From Cytophagales bacterium (lineage in GTDB: Bacteria; Bacteroidota; Bacteroidia; Cytophagales; Thermoflexibacteraceae), in contig JAAFJS010000002.1 of NCBI GenBank assembly GCA_013298985.1, forward strand, positions 1 to 64,000: DNA of 64,000 bases, read 5' to 3'. The notes beneath the pieces were generated by a model that saw nothing but the letters and a program-made list of their open reading frames with translations, was not told where the DNA came from and ran no database searches. Below are positions 283 through 9,978 of this stretch, one piece after another. Positions within the stretch are counted from its first letter, which is position 1, and each line of letters opens with the position of its first letter. The translations under genes were made by a program, and so were the position numbers.

Positions 283-3201
283 ATGGAAGTTCTGATATAC
301 AACGAGTTAGATTATAGCAAAGTAAAAAAACAATTTGAGAAAACAATCAATTACCTCAAAGCTGGTGATTTCAAATCTGCTGACGTAAAGAAAATGGTCA
401 ATACGGGGTTTTATCGCGCCAAACTGGACGATACCAATCGCTTGCTTTTCAAATACACCTTGATTGATGGTAAGAAATATTTGTTGCTTTTGGAGGTGAT
501 TTTGAATCATGCCTACGAAAAGTCGCGGTTTCTCAACGGCAGTACGGTAGATGAAAGCAAACTTTCTTCGGTGCAACTGCCCGAACAACTGCTCGCTGAG
601 GAAATTACCACTGTCAATTATGTCAATGCAGGGAAAAAGACTTTTCATATTTTAGATAAAATTTTGTCCTTTGATGAAATTCAGGAGGAGATATTTAGCC
701 TGCCCAGCCCCTTGATAATCATAGGCTCGGCGGGAAGCGGAAAGACGGCACTCACCCTCGAAAAAATAAAAACCTTGCAAGGCAGAATACTTTATACGAC
801 ACTGTCTGCTTACCTTACCGAAAATTCGCAAAATCTCTATTATTCTTTTGGCTATGACAATGAGCATCAGGAAGTTGAGTTTATGTCCTTCCAAGAGTAC
901 ATGAGTGCTATCGAGATACCGCAGGGCAGAGAAATAGATTTTAGGGCTTTTGAGCAGTGGATTTGGCGTTTTAAGCAAAGCCACAAAGTCAAAGATGCCT
1001 ACAAGGTCTATGAAGAATTTAAGGGTGTACTGACAGGAGCAGTCGTGGATAAGCCCTACCTAAGCGAAGCAGAATACCTAAATCTGGGCGTGAAACAATC
1101 CATCTTCTTGGAAAGCGAACGCGCAGGCATCTATGATTTATTTACGCGTTATTTGACTTTTTTGGACGAAGGGATATACTTTGATAGCAACATTTTGGCA
1201 CAGCAATACTTAGGAAAAGTGCAAAAAAACTACGACTTTGTGGTCATCGATGAGGTACAAGACATTACCAATGTGCAACTATACCTGATTGTCAAATCAC
1301 TACACCATACCACCAATTTTATTTTGTGTGGTGATGCTAACCAGATTGTTCACCCAAACTTCTTCTCATGGACAAACATCAAAAGCCTTTTTTATAAACA
1401 AGAACTCAAAGGCAACATCATCAGGATACTGGCAACCAATTACCGCAATACACCCGAAGTTACAAAGATTGCAAACCAGCTTTTATTGGTAAAAAATGCA
1501 CGTTTTGGCTCCATAGACAAGGAAAGCACCTACTTGGTCAAGGCAAATGCCAAGCACAAAGGCGAGGTACAATTCATGGAAAACACGCCCAAAATCAAGC
1601 AAGACCTCAATCAGCGCACCCGAAAATCTGCCAAATTTGCCGTTATCGTCATGCGAAACGAAGACAAAGAAGAAGCCAAAAGATTTTTTCAGACTCCCTT
1701 ACTGTTCTCTATCCATGAAGTAAAAGGGCTTGAATATGAAAATATTATTCTCTATGACATCATTTCTAATTACGAAAAAGAGTTTCGAGAAATTGCTACA
1801 GGCGTAAACAAAGAAGACTTAGAGGCTGACATTCACTATGCAAGAGCCAAAGACAAAACGGACAAGTCCCTCGATGAATACAAATTTTATATCAACTCCC
1901 TCTACGTAGCCATCACCAGGGCTATCAAGAACCTTTACGTAATAGAGAGCAACAAAAAACACCCCTTGTTAGCACTGCTGGACTTGACTAATTTTAGTAC
2001 CCAGCTAAACCTAAAAGAGCAAGCCTCTACCGCAGAAGAATGGCAAAAAGAAGCGCGCCGATTAGAAATGCAAGGCAAAAAAGAACAAGCAGATGCCATA
2101 CGCAACGAAGTTTTGCAAATTAAGCCTGTTCCTTGGGAAATTGTTACGCGACAGAACCTCAAAGAAATCATTAAAAATGCGACCGATGAAAAAAATTTTA
2201 ATAAAAAAGCCAAAGATATATTGTATGAGTATGCCTTATTTTATAACGAATCCACCTATTTTAGAAAGCTACACAAACTCAAATACGGACCCGCAGAGCA
2301 TGGTCGCTGGCAAAAAGAAGGCGCAGGTTTCCTGAGTCGCAAGTTTTTTAATTACAAACAAGATGATATAAAACCGCTACAAGCTCTCCTCCAAAAGCAT
2401 GGTACAGATTTCAGAAACGAGTATAACCTAACTCCACTCATGCTTTCAGTCATTTATGGGGCAGAAAAAATCTTTAAAAAACTACTGGAAAGTGGTGCCA
2501 GCCTGCTACTGACGGATAATTATGGAAACAATGCTCTACGCTTGTTGTTGCTGCAAAGCCGCATAAACCCATTACAGAAAAAAAATCTCAATCATATTTA
2601 TCCACTTTTGAAAAATGAAAGCCTCAAACTCAAAATTGGCAACCGATTTATCAAGATAGACAGCCATCAGGCAGAATACCTCATGCTCAATTTTGCACTT
2701 GCCTCCTTCAAACTCCTCGCTTTGCACTATGGAGATATAGAAAGCAAGGTAGGCAAAGGATACAGCGAACCGTATTTTGAAAGCGCAGACTTCTTAGATT
2801 TTTTTGAGGGATTACCCATACAAGTCATCGCTGAATATCGTACCAAAAGAAGCTATATTTCAAGCATTTTGACTAAAAACGAAGTCTATTCAGATAGCCC
2901 CTATAATAAAAAACTTTTTTTGCGGATTACCAAAGGAAAGTACATCATTAACCCCCTCACCGAGCTGATGGTCGATGAAAACTGGGTCAAGTTTTACGAA
3001 TTGGTAGATATAGAACTGATAGAGCAACAAGTGACGGAAAAAACAGAAGAAAAATTTGATGCCGAATTTAGAAAATACGGAAAAAAAGAATTGAACAACT
3101 GGGAAACAAAAGTACAGGAAAGTCGCTTAAAAATGGTAAAAGAAATTTTTGCTAATTTTCGCACCATGCCCGTAAGTGCATCAGCAGAGGAAGACAAGTA
3201 G
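283..3201 (+). CDS. RelE/ParE-like N-terminal domain + UvrD-like SF1 helicase + ankyrin repeats
   Basis: ORF 214..3201 opens at TTG; ATG at 283 starts MEVLIYNELDYSKVKK. N-term GFYRAKLDDTNRLLFKYTLIDGKKYLLLLEVILNHAYEKSRFL resembles RelE/ParE fold; GSAGSGKTALT (Walker A), VVIDEVQDI (Walker B), CGDANQIV, NYRNTPEV, HEVKGLEYENIILYD, YVAITRAIKNLYV are UvrD-type motifs; NLTPLMLSVIYGAEKIFKKLLESGASLLLTDNYGNNALRLLL is ankyrin-like. Confidence 0.85.
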   Translation: MEVLIYNELDYSKVKKQFEKTINYLKAGDFKSADVKKMVNTGFYRAKLDDTNRLLFKYTLIDGKKYLLLLEVILNHAYEKSRFLNGSTVDESKLSSVQLPEQLLAEEITTVNYVNAGKKTFHILDKILSFDEIQEEIFSLPSPLIIIGSAGSGKTALTLEKIKTLQGRILYTTLSAYLTENSQNLYYSFGYDNEHQEVEFMSFQEYMSAIEIPQGREIDFRAFEQWIWRFKQSHKVKDAYKVYEEFKGVLTGAVVDKPYLSEAEYLNLGVKQSIFLESERAGIYDLFTRYLTFLDEGIYFDSNILAQQYLGKVQKNYDFVVIDEVQDITNVQLYLIVKSLHHTTNFILCGDANQIVHPNFFSWTNIKSLFYKQELKGNIIRILATNYRNTPEVTKIANQLLLVKNARFGSIDKESTYLVKANAKHKGEVQFMENTPKIKQDLNQRTRKSAKFAVIVMRNEDKEEAKRFFQTPLLFSIHEVKGLEYENIILYDIISNYEKEFREIATGVNKEDLEADIHYARAKDKTDKSLDEYKFYINSLYVAITRAIKNLYVIESNKKHPLLALLDLTNFSTQLNLKEQASTAEEWQKEARRLEMQGKKEQADAIRNEVLQIKPVPWEIVTRQNLKEIIKNATDEKNFNKKAKDILYEYALFYNESTYFRKLHKLKYGPAEHGRWQKEGAGFLSRKFFNYKQDDIKPLQALLQKHGTDFRNEYNLTPLMLSVIYGAEKIFKKLLESGASLLLTDNYGNNALRLLLLQSRINPLQKKNLNHIYPLLKNESLKLKIGNRFIKIDSHQAEYLMLNFALASFKLLALHYGDIESKVGKGYSEPYFESADFLDFFEGLPIQVIAEYRTKRSYISSILTKNEVYSDSPYNKKLFLRITKGKYIINPLTELMVDENWVKFYELVDIELIEQQVTEKTEEKFDAEFRKYGKKELNNWETKVQESRLKMVKEIFANFRTMPVSASAEEDK

Positions 3202-3255
3202 CGACAATAAATTATACAGCATCATTTACTGTAATGAAATTTACTGAAAAAATTG

Positions 3256-3263
3256 TACCTTTG
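3256..3263 (+). promoter_or_regulatory. Bacteroidota -7-like element TACCTTTG upstream of mtaB
   Basis: Matches TAnnTTTG consensus about 30 nt before the GTG start; no clean -33 TTTG seen. Confidence 0.4.
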
Positions 3264-3292
3264 CATCTTCAAACCAAATTAAGATTCATTGA

Positions 3293-4627
3293 GTGAAAAA
3301 AGTTGCTTTTTATACCTTGGGTTGCAAGCTGAACTACTCTGAAACTTCTACGATTGCGCGACAGTTCGAGCAAAAAGGGTATCAGAAAGTAGAGTTTACG
3401 GACACGCCCGATATTTTTATCATCAATACATGCTCGGTTACAGATAATGCTGACAAAAAATGTAGGAAAATAGTCAGAGAAGCCAGAAGCATCGCCCCTG
3501 ATGCTTACATAGCAATTATTGGCTGCTATGCCCAGCTCAAACCCAAAGAAATCGCGGAGATTGAAGGTGTAGATGCGGTGCTTGGCGCGGCTGAAAAGTT
3601 CCGCCTCATGGACTTGCTCGATGGCTTTGTCAGACCCGCGCAAGCGCAGGTTTTTGCCTCTTCGGTCGAGCAGGCAACTACTTTTCACCATTCGTTTTCT
3701 TATGGCGACCGCACGCGCACCTTCCTCAAAGTCCAAGACGGCTGCAACTATAACTGTGCTTTTTGCACCATTCCCTTAGCCCGCGGCGAAAGTCGTAGCG
3801 ATACCTTAGAAAATATTATCGCGAAGGCGCAAGAAGTAGCGCGCACTGGCGAAGTCAAAGAAATTGTGCTAACAGGCGTAAATACAGGCGATTACGGAAT
3901 TATTAATGGCAAACGAATATACCGTTTCATAGATTTATTAAAAGAATTGGACAAGGTAGAAGGAATAGAAAGATTCAGAATCTCCTCCATCGAGCCTAAT
4001 CTGCTCACTGACGAAATCATAGAGTTTGTGGCACAATCCAGCAAATTTGTACCGCATTTTCATATTCCTTTGCAGTCGGGCAGTAATAAAATCTTGCGCC
4101 TCATGTATCGACGCTATCCGCGCGAACTCTATGCGGATAGAATCCAGAAAATCAAGACATTCATGCCAAACTGCTGTATCGGGGTAGATGTGATTGTGGG
4201 CTTTCCTGCCGAAAGCCATGAAGATTTCTTGGAAACTTACAATTTTATCAATGAGTTAGACATTTCTTATTTGCACGTTTTTACCTATTCCGAACGCGCC
4301 AATACAGTTGCGATTAAGTCCAAAGAAGTCGTGCCAAGCAAAGTGCGTAACGAACGTTCTAAGATGCTGCATATTCTTGGTGAAAAGAAAAAAAGGCTTT
4401 TTTATGAGCAAAATGTGGGGCAGACAGCTACTGCACTTTTTGAAAATGACATAGAAAATGGAAAAATGCACGGATTTACAGAAAACTATATTCGCGTGAG
4501 TGCAAAGTACGACCCTCTGTTAATCAATGAGTTAAAAACAGTAGCACTCACCTCTATCAATGAAAAAGGCTTGATGGACGTAGAGGAAGCGATATTGGAG
4601 AACTCCTTGTTTTTGACAACACACTAA
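3293..4627 (+). CDS. mtaB: tRNA (N6-threonylcarbamoyladenosine(37)-C2)-methylthiotransferase MtaB
   Basis: MKKVAFYTLGCKLNYSET N-term, radical SAM motif CNYNCAFCTIP, GVNTGDYG; GTG start. Confidence 0.93.
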   Translation: MKKVAFYTLGCKLNYSETSTIARQFEQKGYQKVEFTDTPDIFIINTCSVTDNADKKCRKIVREARSIAPDAYIAIIGCYAQLKPKEIAEIEGVDAVLGAAEKFRLMDLLDGFVRPAQAQVFASSVEQATTFHHSFSYGDRTRTFLKVQDGCNYNCAFCTIPLARGESRSDTLENIIAKAQEVARTGEVKEIVLTGVNTGDYGIINGKRIYRFIDLLKELDKVEGIERFRISSIEPNLLTDEIIEFVAQSSKFVPHFHIPLQSGSNKILRLMYRRYPRELYADRIQKIKTFMPNCCIGVDVIVGFPAESHEDFLETYNFINELDISYLHVFTYSERANTVAIKSKEVVPSKVRNERSKMLHILGEKKKRLFYEQNVGQTATALFENDIENGKMHGFTENYIRVSAKYDPLLINELKTVALTSINEKGLMDVEEAILENSLFLTTH

Positions 4628-4777
4628 CTCGCTATAAGTAGTTATGAATTATTAGTTATGAATTATGAATTGATATAATTTGCTAATAATCAACGTTTTA
4701 TACAAAATTTATGGTAGTCTGTAACAAGTAATGCTAAACGCTGTGTGCAACACCTGCAACGCAACAAAAAATTTAAA

Positions 4778-5956
4778 ATGGACGAAAACAAACCATCTTT
4801 TAATTATCAATTCTTTCAGCAAGAACCACCAAAACCCAAAAATCGTTATTGGTTACACCTTCTTTTATTTGTAATCACCTTGATAACCACTACTTTGTCA
4901 GGGGCAGAATGGATGACAGGCAGGTCTTTTTTTTACGGAAAAGAACTGCTTGGTCTGAGTAATTTTTGGGCGGGGCTTTATTTTTCACTGCCTTTTTTGG
5001 GCATACTCACCGCGCACGAGTTTGGGCATTATTTCACTGCCAAATACTACAAAATCAATGTTTCCCTGCCTTTTTATATCCCAATGTGGGTAGGCTTTTT
5101 GGCTTCGCTTTCCATAGGCACGATGGGTGCGTTTATTCAGATTCGCGAGCAGCTCAAATCCACCAAACAGATTTTTGATGTGGGCATTGCGGGACCTTTG
5201 GCAGGTTTTGTTTTTGCTATCCTCTTGCTTTGGTACGGTTTCACGCATCTTCCTCCTATCGAGTATATTTTCCAGATTCACCCCGAATACAAGCAATTTG
5301 GCTTCCGCTATGCTGATTATGCGTATAAAAACAACCCTTTTGGCGCAATAGGTTTGGGAACAAACCTGATTTTTGAGTTTTTCAAAACCTACGTGGTCGA
5401 AGACCCAAAGCTGATTCCTCACGCCTACGAAATGGCGCATTACCCCTTTCTTTTTGCAGGTTATTTGGCACTATTTTTTACGGCACTGAATCTCATTCCG
5501 ATAGGGCAACTGGACGGCGGACACATTTTGTACGGACTTATTGGTGCAAAAAAACATAAAATTACCTCTTTGGTTTTGTTTGTGATTTTTATTTTTTATG
5601 CAGGCTTAGGCACATTCCAGCCCTCAGAAGTAACACTGGAAACGGCTTGGTACGTACTTCCTTACATTGCGTTTTTGTTTTTTGTTTTCTACAAAGTTTT
5701 TCCTAACAAACTGACAGTGAGCATAGTAGCATTGAGCATTTTTGTAGGGCAAATTATTTTTGGCTTTTTATTTCCCACCATTCAGGGCTATTCGGGCTGG
5801 TTGGTTTTTGGTTTTATTTTGGGAAACTTCTTGGGCATCACGCACCCACCTGTCGCGCACGAACACACCTTAGACTGGAAAAGAAAGGTATTGGGCTGGC
5901 TGGCACTGATTATTTTTATCTTGTGCTTTTCTCCTGAACCTTTTATAGTGCGGTAA
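4778..5956 (+). CDS. site-2 protease family (M50) membrane metalloprotease
   Basis: HEFGH motif, LIPIGQLDGGHI motif, multiple TM segments; ATG at 4778 preferred over ORF start 4745. Confidence 0.88.
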   Translation: MDENKPSFNYQFFQQEPPKPKNRYWLHLLLFVITLITTTLSGAEWMTGRSFFYGKELLGLSNFWAGLYFSLPFLGILTAHEFGHYFTAKYYKINVSLPFYIPMWVGFLASLSIGTMGAFIQIREQLKSTKQIFDVGIAGPLAGFVFAILLLWYGFTHLPPIEYIFQIHPEYKQFGFRYADYAYKNNPFGAIGLGTNLIFEFFKTYVVEDPKLIPHAYEMAHYPFLFAGYLALFFTALNLIPIGQLDGGHILYGLIGAKKHKITSLVLFVIFIFYAGLGTFQPSEVTLETAWYVLPYIAFLFFVFYKVFPNKLTVSIVALSIFVGQIIFGFLFPTIQGYSGWLVFGFILGNFLGITHPPVAHEHTLDWKRKVLGWLALIIFILCFSPEPFIVR

Positions 5957-5992
5957 AAATGTATAAAATTTTATTGTCAAGAGTGCGACATT

Positions 5993-6028
5993 AAAAAAGC
6001 ATCATACGTGCGCGCATGATGCTTTTTT
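5993..6028. terminator. bidirectional rho-independent terminator
   Basis: AAAAAAGCATCAT / ATGATGCTTTTTT inverted repeat between convergent genes. Confidence 0.85.
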
Positions 6029-6029
6029 C

Positions 6030-6881
6030 CTAATATTTCATCTTTTTCAAATAATCAAAACTGATTTTGATGCTTTCCAGTGAGGGGCGTTTGCATACAT
6101 CTTGCTCCACAAAAAAATGTTTCATGCCAGCCTTACTTGCTTTTGCAAAGATTTTTTTGAAATCAATAGACCCATTTCCCACTTCTGTAAACTCTTTTTT
6201 CTCAGTGGTATCCATGTCTTTGACGTGCCAAAGTGGGAAGCGATTGGGGTATTTTTCAAAATAAACCAAAGGGTCGGCACCCGCTTTTACTGTCCAAAAC
6301 ATATCTATTTCCATAGACATCAAATCCGCAGGGACATTATCAAGCAGGTAATCAAAGAGCATTTGCCCTTCTACCTTTTCAAACTCAAAATCGTGATTAT
6401 GGTAAGCAAGATGAATGCCCGCTTTTTTACACGCCTCACCAGACTTGGTAAATAGTGCTACTAATTTTTTGAAATCTTCAAGCGTTTTGCGCTCGTTTGG
6501 TGTAGTAAATGAGCAGACCATAAATTTTTGCCCCACTGCCGCGCAGTCTTCTATCGCTTTGTCCAGTGAATTGTTTAGCATTGCTGTACTCACATGACCG
6601 CTGGGGGCTTTTAATCCGCTATTATCCAAGAGTTTTTTGAATTCGGCAGGCTTTTTTCCATAAAAAAGCCCTTCGCTATACCCCGCCAGTTCTACCTCTT
6701 TATAGCCAATCGCTGCCACTTTTTGGAGGGTGGCAATGGGGTCTTTCTCCATTTCATCGCGTACGGTATAAAGCTGCACGCCTTGTTTTTTGATACGAGC
6801 CGCCTCTGACTCGGAGGGCAAAAAAGCCAAAGCTGTTGCGCCTAATGCTGTTTTTTTTAAGAAATTCCTGCGATTTTCCAT
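6030..6881 (-). CDS. sugar phosphate isomerase/epimerase, TIM barrel, Tat-type signal
   Basis: MENRRNFLKKTALGATALAF Tat-like signal; GVQLYTVRDEM, HNHDFEFE, WHVKDM, VEQDVC motifs. Confidence 0.85.
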   Translation of the reverse strand: MENRRNFLKKTALGATALAFLPSESEAARIKKQGVQLYTVRDEMEKDPIATLQKVAAIGYKEVELAGYSEGLFYGKKPAEFKKLLDNSGLKAPSGHVSTAMLNNSLDKAIEDCAAVGQKFMVCSFTTPNERKTLEDFKKLVALFTKSGEACKKAGIHLAYHNHDFEFEKVEGQMLFDYLLDNVPADLMSMEIDMFWTVKAGADPLVYFEKYPNRFPLWHVKDMDTTEKKEFTEVGNGSIDFKKIFAKASKAGMKHFFVEQDVCKRPSLESIKISFDYLKKMKY

Positions 6882-6955
6882 TTTACTAAATGTTTATTAG
6901 TTTGTTTGCTTTATTGACATTCAAGAATAAACCGTTCTTGGATTTTGAACGTTCC

Positions 6956-6971
6956 CACCGTTAAAACGGTG
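6956..6971. repeat. hairpin CACCGT-TAAA-ACGGTG (TAAA-loop hairpin family)
   Basis: Inverted repeat with TAAA loop; related hairpins at 43027, 47207 and 47258. Confidence 0.5.
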
Positions 6972-7125
6972 AGCTATATTTAACCTACCGTTTTAACGCC
7001 GCAGTGGAACTGGTAGGAACTCAAAGAACGAGTATTTTATGAAAACCAATTAAGTAACTACGTAATTATGAATTAATCGTGGCGGCAAATCATATAAACA
7101 GTTATGAGCCAATGCTTTGCATTAA

Positions 7126-7211
7126 CTCATAATTTATAACTCATAATTCATAATTTATAATTCATAATTTATAATTCATAATTTATAACTCATAATTTAT
7201 AACTCATAATT
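7126..7211. repeat. AT-rich tandem repeat, ~14-bp unit TAAYTCATAATTTA
   Basis: About six imperfect head-to-tail copies directly after the sucA stop. Confidence 0.85.
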
Positions 7212-7218
7212 CCTTACC

Positions 7219-9978
7219 TTATTCAAAAACCTTATTGATAATTGCTGCTTGCTCTACTGCGTGTACCTTGCTGAAACCTGTGGCTGTGGAGGCACTTACC
7301 TTTCTGGAAATCAACTCCAAAGGCACGTGGCGCACCGTTCTGAGTAGATAAGCCCAGTAGCCCATGTTTTCTGGTTCTTCCTGTACCCAATACACTTTTG
7401 CTTTTTTGTACTTTTCCACTTCAGCATTGAACTGCGAGAAAGGGAAAGGGTGAATCTGCTCCAAACGGACGATGGCTACATCTTTGCGTTTGTCAGCTTG
7501 CTGTTTTTCAAGGAGTTCGTAATAAATTTTGCCTGTGCAGAATATCAATTTGCTCACTTTGTTGGCGGGCTTGGCATAGTCATCTCCTATCATTTCTTGG
7601 AAACCACCTTGTGTGAAATTCTCTAATGGAGAAACGCATTTGGGGTGGCGTAAAAGCGATTTGGGGGACATCACCACGCAGGGTTTGCGGAAATTCCATG
7701 CCAACTGTCTTCGCAATAAATGGAAGTAATTGGCTGGTGTGGTGATGTTTGCGACCACCATATTGTACTCGGCACAAAGCTGCAAGAAGCGTTCGGGTCT
7801 TGCGCTGGAATGTTCGGGTCCTTGCCCTTCGTAGCCATGAGGCAATAGCATCACCAAGCCATTCATTTTGTTCCACTTCGTTTCACCTGCGGCGATGAAC
7901 TGGTCTATCATAATCTGCGCGCCATTCACAAAATCGCCAAATTGAGCCTCCCAAAGCACCAAAGCGTTAGGGTTTGAAAAAGAATAGCCATATTCGAAAC
8001 CTAATACACCATATTCGGAAAGCAAGGAATTGTAAATCCAATATTTTTCCTGCCCTTCTTCTATTTGGTTCAGTTGGCAGTAATCCTCATTGGTTTCTGC
8101 GTCTTTGACTATCGCGTGGCGGTGCGAAAAAGTACCTCTCTCCACGTCTTGTCCTGAGAGCCTAACCATCTTATTTTCAATGAGTAATGTACCGTAAGCG
8201 AGTAATTCTCCGCTTGCCCAGTTTACCTCTTTGTCTTCAAAAAATGATTTTTGACGGTCTTTGATGAGTTTTTCTATTTGTTTGATGGGTTTAAAACCTG
8301 TAGGCAAACTTACCAAAGCCTTCATTACTTTTTCTAATGTAGTTTGAGAAACCGCAGTCGTAGGAGATTTCTCGAAGTCCTCTGGTGCAGAACGGCGCAA
8401 CTTTGCCCATTCTTCATCAAATTTCTTATCTATCTGGGGAATAGATTGTTGCTTGACCAAATTCAAACGGTCTTGGAGCAACTGCTTAAATTCGCTGTCC
8501 ATCTCACTGGCTAAGTTTGCATCGACATCTCCACGTTCCAGCAGGCGTTTATTATACAAATCCCTTGGGTTGGGGTGTTTGGCTATCACGTTGTAAAGCA
8601 GTGGTTGTGTGAATCTTGGCTCGTCGGTTTCATTGTGTCCATGCCTACGATAGCAAACCATGTCTATAAAAATATCTTTTTGAAACTTTTGACGGAACTC
8701 TGTTGCCAGCTCTACCGCAAAAACCACCGCCTCTGGGTCATCACCGTTTACGTGCAATACAGGCGAATCAAGCATATTAGCAACGTCCGTACAATAATTG
8801 CTGGAACGTGCATCTTCGAAATCGGTCGTAAAACCTACCTGATTGTTAATCACAAAATGAATCGTACCGCCTACGCTGTATCCTTTGAGTTCTGACATCT
8901 GAACTACCTCATACACAATGCCTTGCCCTGCTACCGCCGCATCACCATGAATCAAAATAGGCACCATTTTCGTATTGTCGCCTTCGTAATATTTGTCGAT
9001 TTGCGCCCGCGTAGCTCCTAAGATAACAGGATTGACGGCTTCCAAATGTGAAGGATTGGGAAGTAGGTGAATATCAACGACTTTGCCGCCCGTAGTGGGG
9101 TAGGTATTGGTGTAACCCATGTGGTACTTCACGTCGCCTTCGCCTACGGCATATTCTGCGTGCTTGCCCTCAAATTCGCTAAAAACCTCCTCATACGTTT
9201 TTCCAATAATATTTGTCAAAACGTTCAGTCGCCCGCGATGCGCCATGCCAATAATCAATTCTACCGCGCCCAGCTCTGCCGCTTTGTTAATGATAGCGTC
9301 CATGGCGGGAATGGTGGATTCGCCACCTTCCAAAGAAAATCTTTTTTGTCCTAAAAACTTGGTTTGCAAGAAGTTTTCAAAAACGACCGCTTCATTTAGC
9401 TTCTTTAAAATGCGTTTCTTTTGGTCTGATTTTGGGTCAAAATTAAGGTATTGCGCTTCTATTTTGTCTTTGAGCCAATCATAAATCTCTGGTTCTCTGA
9501 TGTAAGTAAATTCAAAACCAATGCTCCCCAAGTAAATTTTCTCCAAAGCCGCTACTATTTTTCGCAAGGTCGTCGTGCCAAGCCCTAAAGCCTTGCCTGC
9601 CATGAACTCCGTATCTAAATCTGCCTCCGAAAGTTTAAAATCTTTCAAATCCAGCATTGCCTTTCGGTCTTTACGCGGGCGAATTGGGTTGGTTTTGGAT
9701 TTCAAATGTCCGCGAGAACGATACGCCTGAATCAGGTTGCGAACCCATAACTCCTTCTGTGCCACAGCATAAGCATCTGTGGTGGGTGCTTCTGCATGAC
9801 CGTTGCCATGTCCGTTGGTTTCGCTGTCGCTATATGCGATTGAAAAGTCAAAACCTGCAAAAAACTGTTGCCAAGTTTCATCTACCGAAGTAGGTGCGGT
9901 TTTATATGCCTGATACAGCTCATCTACGTAAGCCACATCTGCGTTGGAAAGGTTAGAGATGTACGAAAATTTATCCAT
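7219..9978 (-). CDS. sucA: 2-oxoglutarate dehydrogenase E1 component
   Basis: MDKFSYISNLSNADVAYVDELYQAYK; GMAHRGRLNVL, HGDAAVAGQGIVYE, LLPHGYEGQGPEHSSARPERFLQ. Confidence 0.97.
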   Translation of the reverse strand: MDKFSYISNLSNADVAYVDELYQAYKTAPTSVDETWQQFFAGFDFSIAYSDSETNGHGNGHAEAPTTDAYAVAQKELWVRNLIQAYRSRGHLKSKTNPIRPRKDRKAMLDLKDFKLSEADLDTEFMAGKALGLGTTTLRKIVAALEKIYLGSIGFEFTYIREPEIYDWLKDKIEAQYLNFDPKSDQKKRILKKLNEAVVFENFLQTKFLGQKRFSLEGGESTIPAMDAIINKAAELGAVELIIGMAHRGRLNVLTNIIGKTYEEVFSEFEGKHAEYAVGEGDVKYHMGYTNTYPTTGGKVVDIHLLPNPSHLEAVNPVILGATRAQIDKYYEGDNTKMVPILIHGDAAVAGQGIVYEVVQMSELKGYSVGGTIHFVINNQVGFTTDFEDARSSNYCTDVANMLDSPVLHVNGDDPEAVVFAVELATEFRQKFQKDIFIDMVCYRRHGHNETDEPRFTQPLLYNVIAKHPNPRDLYNKRLLERGDVDANLASEMDSEFKQLLQDRLNLVKQQSIPQIDKKFDEEWAKLRRSAPEDFEKSPTTAVSQTTLEKVMKALVSLPTGFKPIKQIEKLIKDRQKSFFEDKEVNWASGELLAYGTLLIENKMVRLSGQDVERGTFSHRHAIVKDAETNEDYCQLNQIEEGQEKYWIYNSLLSEYGVLGFEYGYSFSNPNALVLWEAQFGDFVNGAQIMIDQFIAAGETKWNKMNGLVMLLPHGYEGQGPEHSSARPERFLQLCAEYNMVVANITTPANYFHLLRRQLAWNFRKPCVVMSPKSLLRHPKCVSPLENFTQGGFQEMIGDDYAKPANKVSKLIFCTGKIYYELLEKQQADKRKDVAIVRLEQIHPFPFSQFNAEVEKYKKAKVYWVQEEPENMGYWAYLLRTVRHVPLELISRKVSASTATGFSKVHAVEQAAIINKVFE

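What the first reader, a model, noticed from the sequence alone, without database searches (positions are those of the whole stretch)
283..3201. RelE/ParE-like toxin fold fused to a UvrD-type helicase and ankyrin repeats
The first ~85 residues carry a pattern typical of RelE/ParE toxins (FYRAKLDDTNRLLFKY...KKYLLLLEVILNHAYEKSRFL), followed by a full set of SF1 UvrD-like helicase motifs and a C-terminal region with ankyrin-like repeats. No obvious antitoxin ORF is adjacent. A single polypeptide combining an RNase/toxin-like fold, a nucleic-acid motor and a protein-interaction module is a plausible defence or RNA-surveillance effector.
Basis: partly seen in the sequence, partly recalled or inferred. 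Interest (0 to 1): 0.72.

Follow-up and report, generated by a model that had tools for sequence, protein, structure and literature searches.

The report
RelE-like domain fused to helicase
One bacterial gene joins a domain built like a known mRNA-cutting toxin to a nucleic-acid motor and a protein-binding tail; intact relatives move between distant bacteria and sit on plasmids, including those of Shigella, but what the protein does is untested and I found no paper describing it.

Summary
Window 283-3201(+) encodes a 972-aa protein: a RelE/YoeB-like N-terminal domain (~1-95), a complete, compact UvrD-like SF1 helicase (119-560), a helical block, about two ankyrin repeats and a conserved C-terminal domain. 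The N-terminal call rests on an AlphaFold2 model whose best PDB matches are nearly all YoeB/RelE/YafQ/ParE toxins, and on a YoeB profile score that none of 150 shuffles reaches. YoeB Arg59, Arg65 and His83 have conserved counterparts (K47, R53, H76); Glu46 is D/E/Q. It is a fixed family, not a one-off fusion: full-length homologues (40-64% identity) occur patchily in Bacteroidota and on plasmids of Pseudomonadota and Deinococcota, including about 100 Shigella records. A sister group keeps RelE+helicase but carries TPRs instead of ankyrins. In one genus 25 of 65 species have the gene; gene-free species keep the flanks, so it is dispensable, yet all domains are under purifying selection. No antitoxin or obligate partner was found. 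Best reading: a self-restrained, probably ribosome-directed effector with a helicase motor and an exchangeable sensor tail, possibly anti-mobile-element defence. Its activity, and any role in defence, are unproven.

The parts
283..3201 (+). whole gene, 972 aa plus stop
   Evidence: full-length homologues
283..567 (+). RelE/YoeB-like N-terminal domain, residues 1-95 (K37, R45, K47, R53, E71, H76, Y78, R82 conserved)
   Evidence: sister proteins
568..636 (+). poorly conserved linker, residues 96-118
637..1962 (+). UvrD-like SF1 helicase core, residues 119-560
724..747 (+). helicase motif I / Walker A, GSAGSGKT (148-155)
1243..1263 (+). helicase motif II / Walker B, VIDEVQD (321-327)
1330..1344 (+). 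helicase motif III, GDANQ (350-354)
1438..1449 (+). helicase motif IV, NYRN (386-389)
1714..1737 (+). helicase motif V, HEVKGLEY (478-485)
1903..1923 (+). helicase motif VI, YVAITRA (541-547)
2005..2217 (+). conserved helical block, residues 575-645 (W..EARxLExQGKxEQA)
2353..2577 (+). about two ankyrin repeats, residues ~691-765
2578..2997 (+). conserved C-terminal domain of unknown fold, residues 766-905
2998..3198 (+). variable tail, residues 906-972

Best explanation
The gene encodes a single-protein effector that needs no separate antitoxin. Its N-terminal domain is a YoeB/RelE-type ribonuclease fold that most likely works at the ribosome (cleaving or occupying A-site mRNA) and is held inactive inside the large protein. 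The ATP-driven SF1 helicase and the C-terminal ankyrin tail (TPR in the sister group) act as sensor and switch: an abnormal nucleic acid and/or a foreign protein releases or positions the RelE-like domain, shutting down translation. The benefit is probably defence against phages or other mobile elements, or stability of the carrying plasmid. Shown here: architecture, family, mobility, dispensability, purifying selection on all domains, retention of most YoeB active-site positions. Inferred: RNase activity, ribosome targeting, self-inhibition, trigger and benefit.
For: RelE/YoeB fold and profile match; R53, H76 invariant and 47 K/R in 14 diverse homologues, matching YoeB Arg65, His83, Arg59 (YoeB mechanism PMC3814384). 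Intact helicase motifs. RelE+helicase pairing kept while the tail is ankyrin here and TPR in the sister group, and the tail is the less conserved part. Horizontally spread, on plasmids, patchy, cleanly absent in relatives. dN/dS 0.06-0.12 in every domain, so the RelE-like domain is not decaying. No antitoxin partner.
Against: No catalytic or toxicity data. The general-base position (YoeB Glu46) is Q in 4 of 14 diverse homologues. Foldseek E-values are only ~1e-3. Defence-gene neighbours are not clearly above control windows. Low dN/dS in the tail does not look like an arms race. Self-inhibition is pure inference; the full-length model is too poor to show domain contacts.
Confidence: 0.42

Rival explanations
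1. Translation quality control: the RelE-like domain docks the protein in the empty A site of stalled ribosomes, and the helicase pulls on or unwinds the mRNA to rescue the ribosome; no killing is involved.
For: Ribosome-directed fold joined to a motor that also matches viral SF1 RNA-helicase models (PF01443); strong purifying selection.
Against: Dispensable, patchy and mobile, unlike core rescue factors; active-site residues conserved beyond what docking alone would need (inference).
Confidence: 0.22
2. DNA-processing helicase of mobile elements (replication, repair, recombination or transfer) in which the RelE-like fold is only a nucleic-acid or protein-binding adaptor.
For: Helicase is nearest to PcrA/Rep/UvrD DNA helicases by structure search; frequent on plasmids.
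Against: Many copies are chromosomal with no replication or transfer genes alongside; YoeB-type R and H residues are kept.
Confidence: 0.25
3. The N-terminal domain is not truly RelE-like; the fold match is a chance resemblance of a small alpha/beta domain.
For: No significant Pfam or PDB sequence hit for the window's own N-terminus; modest Foldseek E-values.
Against: Nearly all of the 28 best fold matches are one superfamily; 0 of 150 shuffles reach the YoeB profile score; weak independent Pfam hits of sister proteins to YoeB and HigB.
Confidence: 0.06

Closest known systems
YoeB/RelE ribosome-dependent mRNase toxins (BECR fold, RelE/ParE superfamily; PF06769, PF05015, PF05016)
   Same: Fold of the N-terminal domain; counterparts of YoeB Arg59, Arg65 and His83
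   Different: Those are ~85-aa stand-alone toxins with a neighbouring antitoxin; here the domain is the front of a 972-aa helicase and no antitoxin is found
UvrD/PcrA/Rep SF1 helicases
   Same: All six motifs and best structure matches
   Different: Motifs IV and V are only ~90 residues apart, so a full 2B subdomain is probably missing (inference); extra RelE-like and ankyrin parts; accessory, not housekeeping
GajB of Gabija (PADLOC hits)
   Same: UvrD-type helicase in a defence setting
   Different: Hits cover only shared SF1 motifs; no GajA-type partner seen next to the copies whose neighbours were read
Fused self-inhibited toxins such as CapRel (PMC9712102; comparison from own knowledge)
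   Same: Proposed logic only: toxin domain and sensing/restraining part in one polypeptide
   Different: Unrelated toxin domain (small alarmone synthetase type) and no helicase
TRANK1 (eukaryotic)
   Same: UvrD-like helicase together with TPR/ankyrin repeats (from memory, a lead only)
   Different: Homology not tested; eukaryotic sequences could not be searched here

Membership tests
RelE/ParE (BECR-fold) superfamily, domain level | beta-alpha-beta-sheet RelE fold | tested here: met
   AlphaFold2 + Foldseek, profile test
RelE/ParE (BECR-fold) superfamily, domain level | YoeB-type active site (Glu46, Arg59, Arg65, His83) | tested here: inconclusive
   R53, H76 invariant, 47 K/R, but position 34 is D/E/Q; H76-His83 pairing is by eye, beyond the profile alignment
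Type II toxin-antitoxin module | adjacent cognate antitoxin | tested here: not met
   no shared small partner in plasmid or genome neighbourhoods; upstream side of the window copy not available
Type II toxin-antitoxin module | ribosome-dependent mRNA cleavage and growth arrest | not testable with these tools
   needs expression and cleavage assays
SF1 UvrD-like helicases | motifs I-VI | tested here: met
SF1 UvrD-like helicases | 2B subdomain | tested here: inconclusive
   ~90 residues between motifs IV and V; helicase part of the model too poor to judge
Ankyrin-repeat proteins | tandem ankyrin repeats | tested here: met
   about two repeats; sub-threshold here, above cut-off in Deinococcus and Thermus homologues
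Gabija (GajAB) | GajA OLD-type nuclease encoded next to GajB | tested here: not met
   none in the annotated plasmid neighbourhoods or downstream in the window
Known anti-phage defence systems | specific match to a described system and/or enrichment near defence genes | tested here: inconclusive
   no specific PADLOC match; neighbours versus control windows not decisive

The most novel reading that the evidence does not exclude
RelE-UvrD-(ankyrin/TPR) proteins are an undescribed, cross-phylum class of single-gene immune effectors: a helicase-driven sensor that unleashes a built-in ribosome-directed RNase, with an exchangeable repeat tail setting what it detects.
Probability: 0.28. Interest if true: 0.8.

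Novelty: new variant of a known kind. Interest (0 to 1): 0.56.

Why it matters
RelE-type toxins are normally tiny and kept in check by a separate antitoxin. A stable, widely exchanged protein that carries such a domain together with a nucleic-acid motor, and no antitoxin, would show another way to control the same chemistry and could link toxin-antitoxin and helicase-based immunity. Copies on ordinary environmental plasmids make it easy to test in laboratory strains, and an unnamed member on Shigella and some E. coli plasmids gives the question wider relevance.

Tried and rejected
Searches of the N-terminus alone in Pfam and PDB sequences gave only chance hits; the signal came from fold, profile and sister-family comparisons. 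A first profile comparison with YoeB was weak and improved after cleaning the alignments and adding the sister group. PADLOC GajB/NERD-UvrD hits rejected as generic SF1 similarity. An HD-domain gene immediately downstream in 14 loci of one genus looked like an operon partner, but it occurs in 50 of 65 species, many without the helicase gene, and keeps its place when the gene is absent: rejected. Defence-island enrichment: 125 neighbours versus 123 control proteins in PADLOC, not decisive. The full-length AlphaFold model is poor (pLDDT 60, pTM 0.40) and was not used for domain contacts. Phage records gave one short, generic helicase match. One IMG/VR contig (L124) matches over the same residues and identity as the Shigella plasmid copies; it may be a plasmid piece rather than a virus, and I did not read it. 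Paper searches for the domain combination and for a Shigella plasmid gene of this kind found no description.

Full report
WHAT IS THERE. The finding's coordinates hold a single intact ORF, 283-3201 (+), 972 aa, starting at ATG 283. Homologues begin at the equivalent residue, so the TTG at 214 is not needed. Downstream lie ordinary chromosomal genes: an MtaB-like methylthiotransferase, a membrane protease, a sugar isomerase-like protein, and sucA at 7219-9978 (identities by inspection). The contig begins at window base 1, so nothing is known upstream of the gene beyond 282 bases; the contig is 90,561 bases long.

DOMAINS. Pfam sees the UvrD-like helicase (PF00580 3.4e-8; PF13361 5.4e-8; PF13245 6.3e-8) and weak ankyrin repeats (PF12796 3.2e-4). 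All six helicase motifs are present. Only about 90 residues separate motifs IV and V, which suggests that a full 2B subdomain is missing (inference). About two ankyrin repeats occupy residues ~691-765; a further conserved domain of unknown fold follows (766-905), then a variable tail. In the Deinococcus and Thermus homologues the ankyrin hits pass Pfam's cut-off.

THE N-TERMINUS. Nothing significant is found for residues 1-120 by sequence against Pfam or the PDB. An AlphaFold2 model from 13 aligned sequences (mean pLDDT 81.6, 88-94 in the core) has the order beta-alpha-(extended)-beta-beta-beta. Foldseek against the PDB ranks YoeB/ParE (6n90), YoeB (2a6r, 7v6w), RelK (3oei), YafQ (4mmj) and Helicobacter RelE-family toxins first; apart from two chains of the insecticidal protein Txp40 (7xbj), the 28 best matches are RelE/ParE-superfamily toxins or their complexes. 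E-values are modest (1.5e-3 at best), so two sequence tests were added. First, a profile of the N-terminal family (including the sister group) against 25 YoeB sequences from related genomes scores 27.45; the highest of 150 column-shuffled controls is 20.8, and the reversed profile scores 10.7. Second, sister proteins match RelE-superfamily Pfam models on their own, though below Pfam's cut-offs: L053 to YoeB_toxin at 0.0039, L051 to HigB-like at 0.013. In the alignment R53 falls on YoeB Arg65 and K47 on Arg59; D34 lies near Glu46; H76 matches His83 by eye, outside the aligned stretch. In 14 diverse homologues R53 and H76 are invariant, position 47 is K or R, and position 34 is D, E or Q. YoeB uses Glu46 as general base, His83 as general acid and Arg65 for the transition state (PMC3814384). 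Most of the active site is therefore kept; RNase activity is plausible, not shown.

THE FAMILY. No full-length homologue was found in the 58 other genomes of the window's own genus, family and order that were searched. Of 136 plasmid records with a match, 126 cover at least 80% of the protein; 101 records are Shigella (flexneri, sonnei, boydii, dysenteriae; most plasmids are of the size of the virulence plasmid), and a few copies there are broken. The plasmid copies carry only generic names ('UvrD-helicase domain-containing', 'AAA family ATPase', 'ankyrin repeat' or hypothetical). A more distant sister group in Crinalium, Euhalothece, Cetobacterium and Paraclostridium keeps the helicase and a RelE-like N-terminus but has TPR repeats in place of ankyrins (in the last two the RelE-like call is by alignment only). 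In the tree the Methylosinus plasmid copy groups with g99, across phyla, with 100% SH-aLRT support: horizontal transfer.

DISPENSABLE, BUT UNDER SELECTION. In g99 many copies sit between an SRPBCC gene and a small gene/HD gene/metH block. In gene-free species the same flanks are contiguous (L126: SRPBCC to 7254, small gene from 7258, HD gene from 7682), whereas L093 has the 3-kb gene exactly between them. The same spot also carries a helicase/methylase/ATPase cassette (L086, L087), an Abi-like gene (L089) or an antitoxin/PIN pair (L096), and an OLD-like ATPase in a gene-free species (L135) (identities by inspection, except the L086 methylase, BREX-PglX-like). Other copies lie at a hydrogenase locus or beside HicAB. 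Among g99 copies median dN/dS is 0.078 (RelE-like), 0.064 (helicase), 0.096 (575-645) and 0.116 (ankyrin and C-terminus); dS is near saturation, so the ratios are rough. The RelE-like domain is kept about as strictly as the motor.

PARTNERS. No neighbour is shared across hosts. The HD gene that follows it in 14 g99 loci occurs in 50 of 65 species, often without it. No antitoxin-like gene travels with it. Toxin-antitoxin genes lie near several copies (DUF1778-GNAT in Deinococcus, MntA-HepT at L041 and HepT at L102, AbiE-type at L038, HicAB at L045 and L090, some by inspection), but there was no matched control for that, and the PADLOC comparison with control windows was not decisive.

HOW IT PROBABLY WORKS. 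The pieces fit a self-contained effector: a ribosome-directed RNase-type domain restrained within a large ATP-driven protein whose helicase and repeat tail sense a trigger. The swap of ankyrin for TPR with the front half unchanged suggests that the tail sets specificity. A comparable logic is known for the fused toxin CapRel (own knowledge; PMC9712102 listed, not read). Rivals are a ribosome-rescue machine and a DNA helicase whose RelE-fold domain is only an adaptor. I put 0.42 on the first and 0.22-0.25 on each rival.

NOVELTY. The 2025 survey of RelE/ParE multidomain toxins set aside many multidomain proteins because no antitoxin could be identified or because a family had too few members, and its main text contains neither 'helicase' nor 'ankyrin' (PMC11980606; its supplementary tables were not available). 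Other full-text searches found no description of the combination. Most subscription papers and preprints are not held, so an earlier description cannot be excluded. I file it as a new variant of a known kind.

Noticed in passing
plasmid records (not fetched): A full-length homologue (about 40% identity, residues 1-911) is carried on plasmids of all four Shigella species (101 records) and 13 E. coli records, annotated only generically; a few copies are broken.
   Followed up: partly
L051, L053, L050, L054: Sister proteins with a RelE-like N-terminus and UvrD-like helicase but TPR repeats at the C-terminus, in Cyanobacteria, Fusobacteriota and Bacillota.
   Followed up: partly
window 283-9978; L034, L035, L044: In three Bacteroidales loci the gene directly follows sucA-sucB on the same strand, and in the window sucA lies about 4 kb away; coincidence or an old shared location.
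   Followed up: no
PHROG phrog_1967: A phage 'DNA helicase' family matches the helicase part of these proteins (1.9e-36 for L053) and has room for an N-terminal domain before it; whether phage members are also RelE-like at the front was not checked.
   Followed up: no
G387:C18:25312-28099 (L103): The gene appears split by a frame change into two ORFs in this species, a likely decaying copy (or an assembly error).
   Followed up: no
L086:1-7706 and L087:838-8846: Three-gene cassette (helicase with PLD-like part, PglX-like methylase, RecF-like ATPase) directly upstream of the gene in two species; looks like a restriction-type defence system.
   Followed up: partly
L124 (viral contigs): One IMG/VR contig encodes a homologue with the same match range and identity as the Shigella plasmid copies; it may be a plasmid piece filed as a virus.
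   Followed up: no
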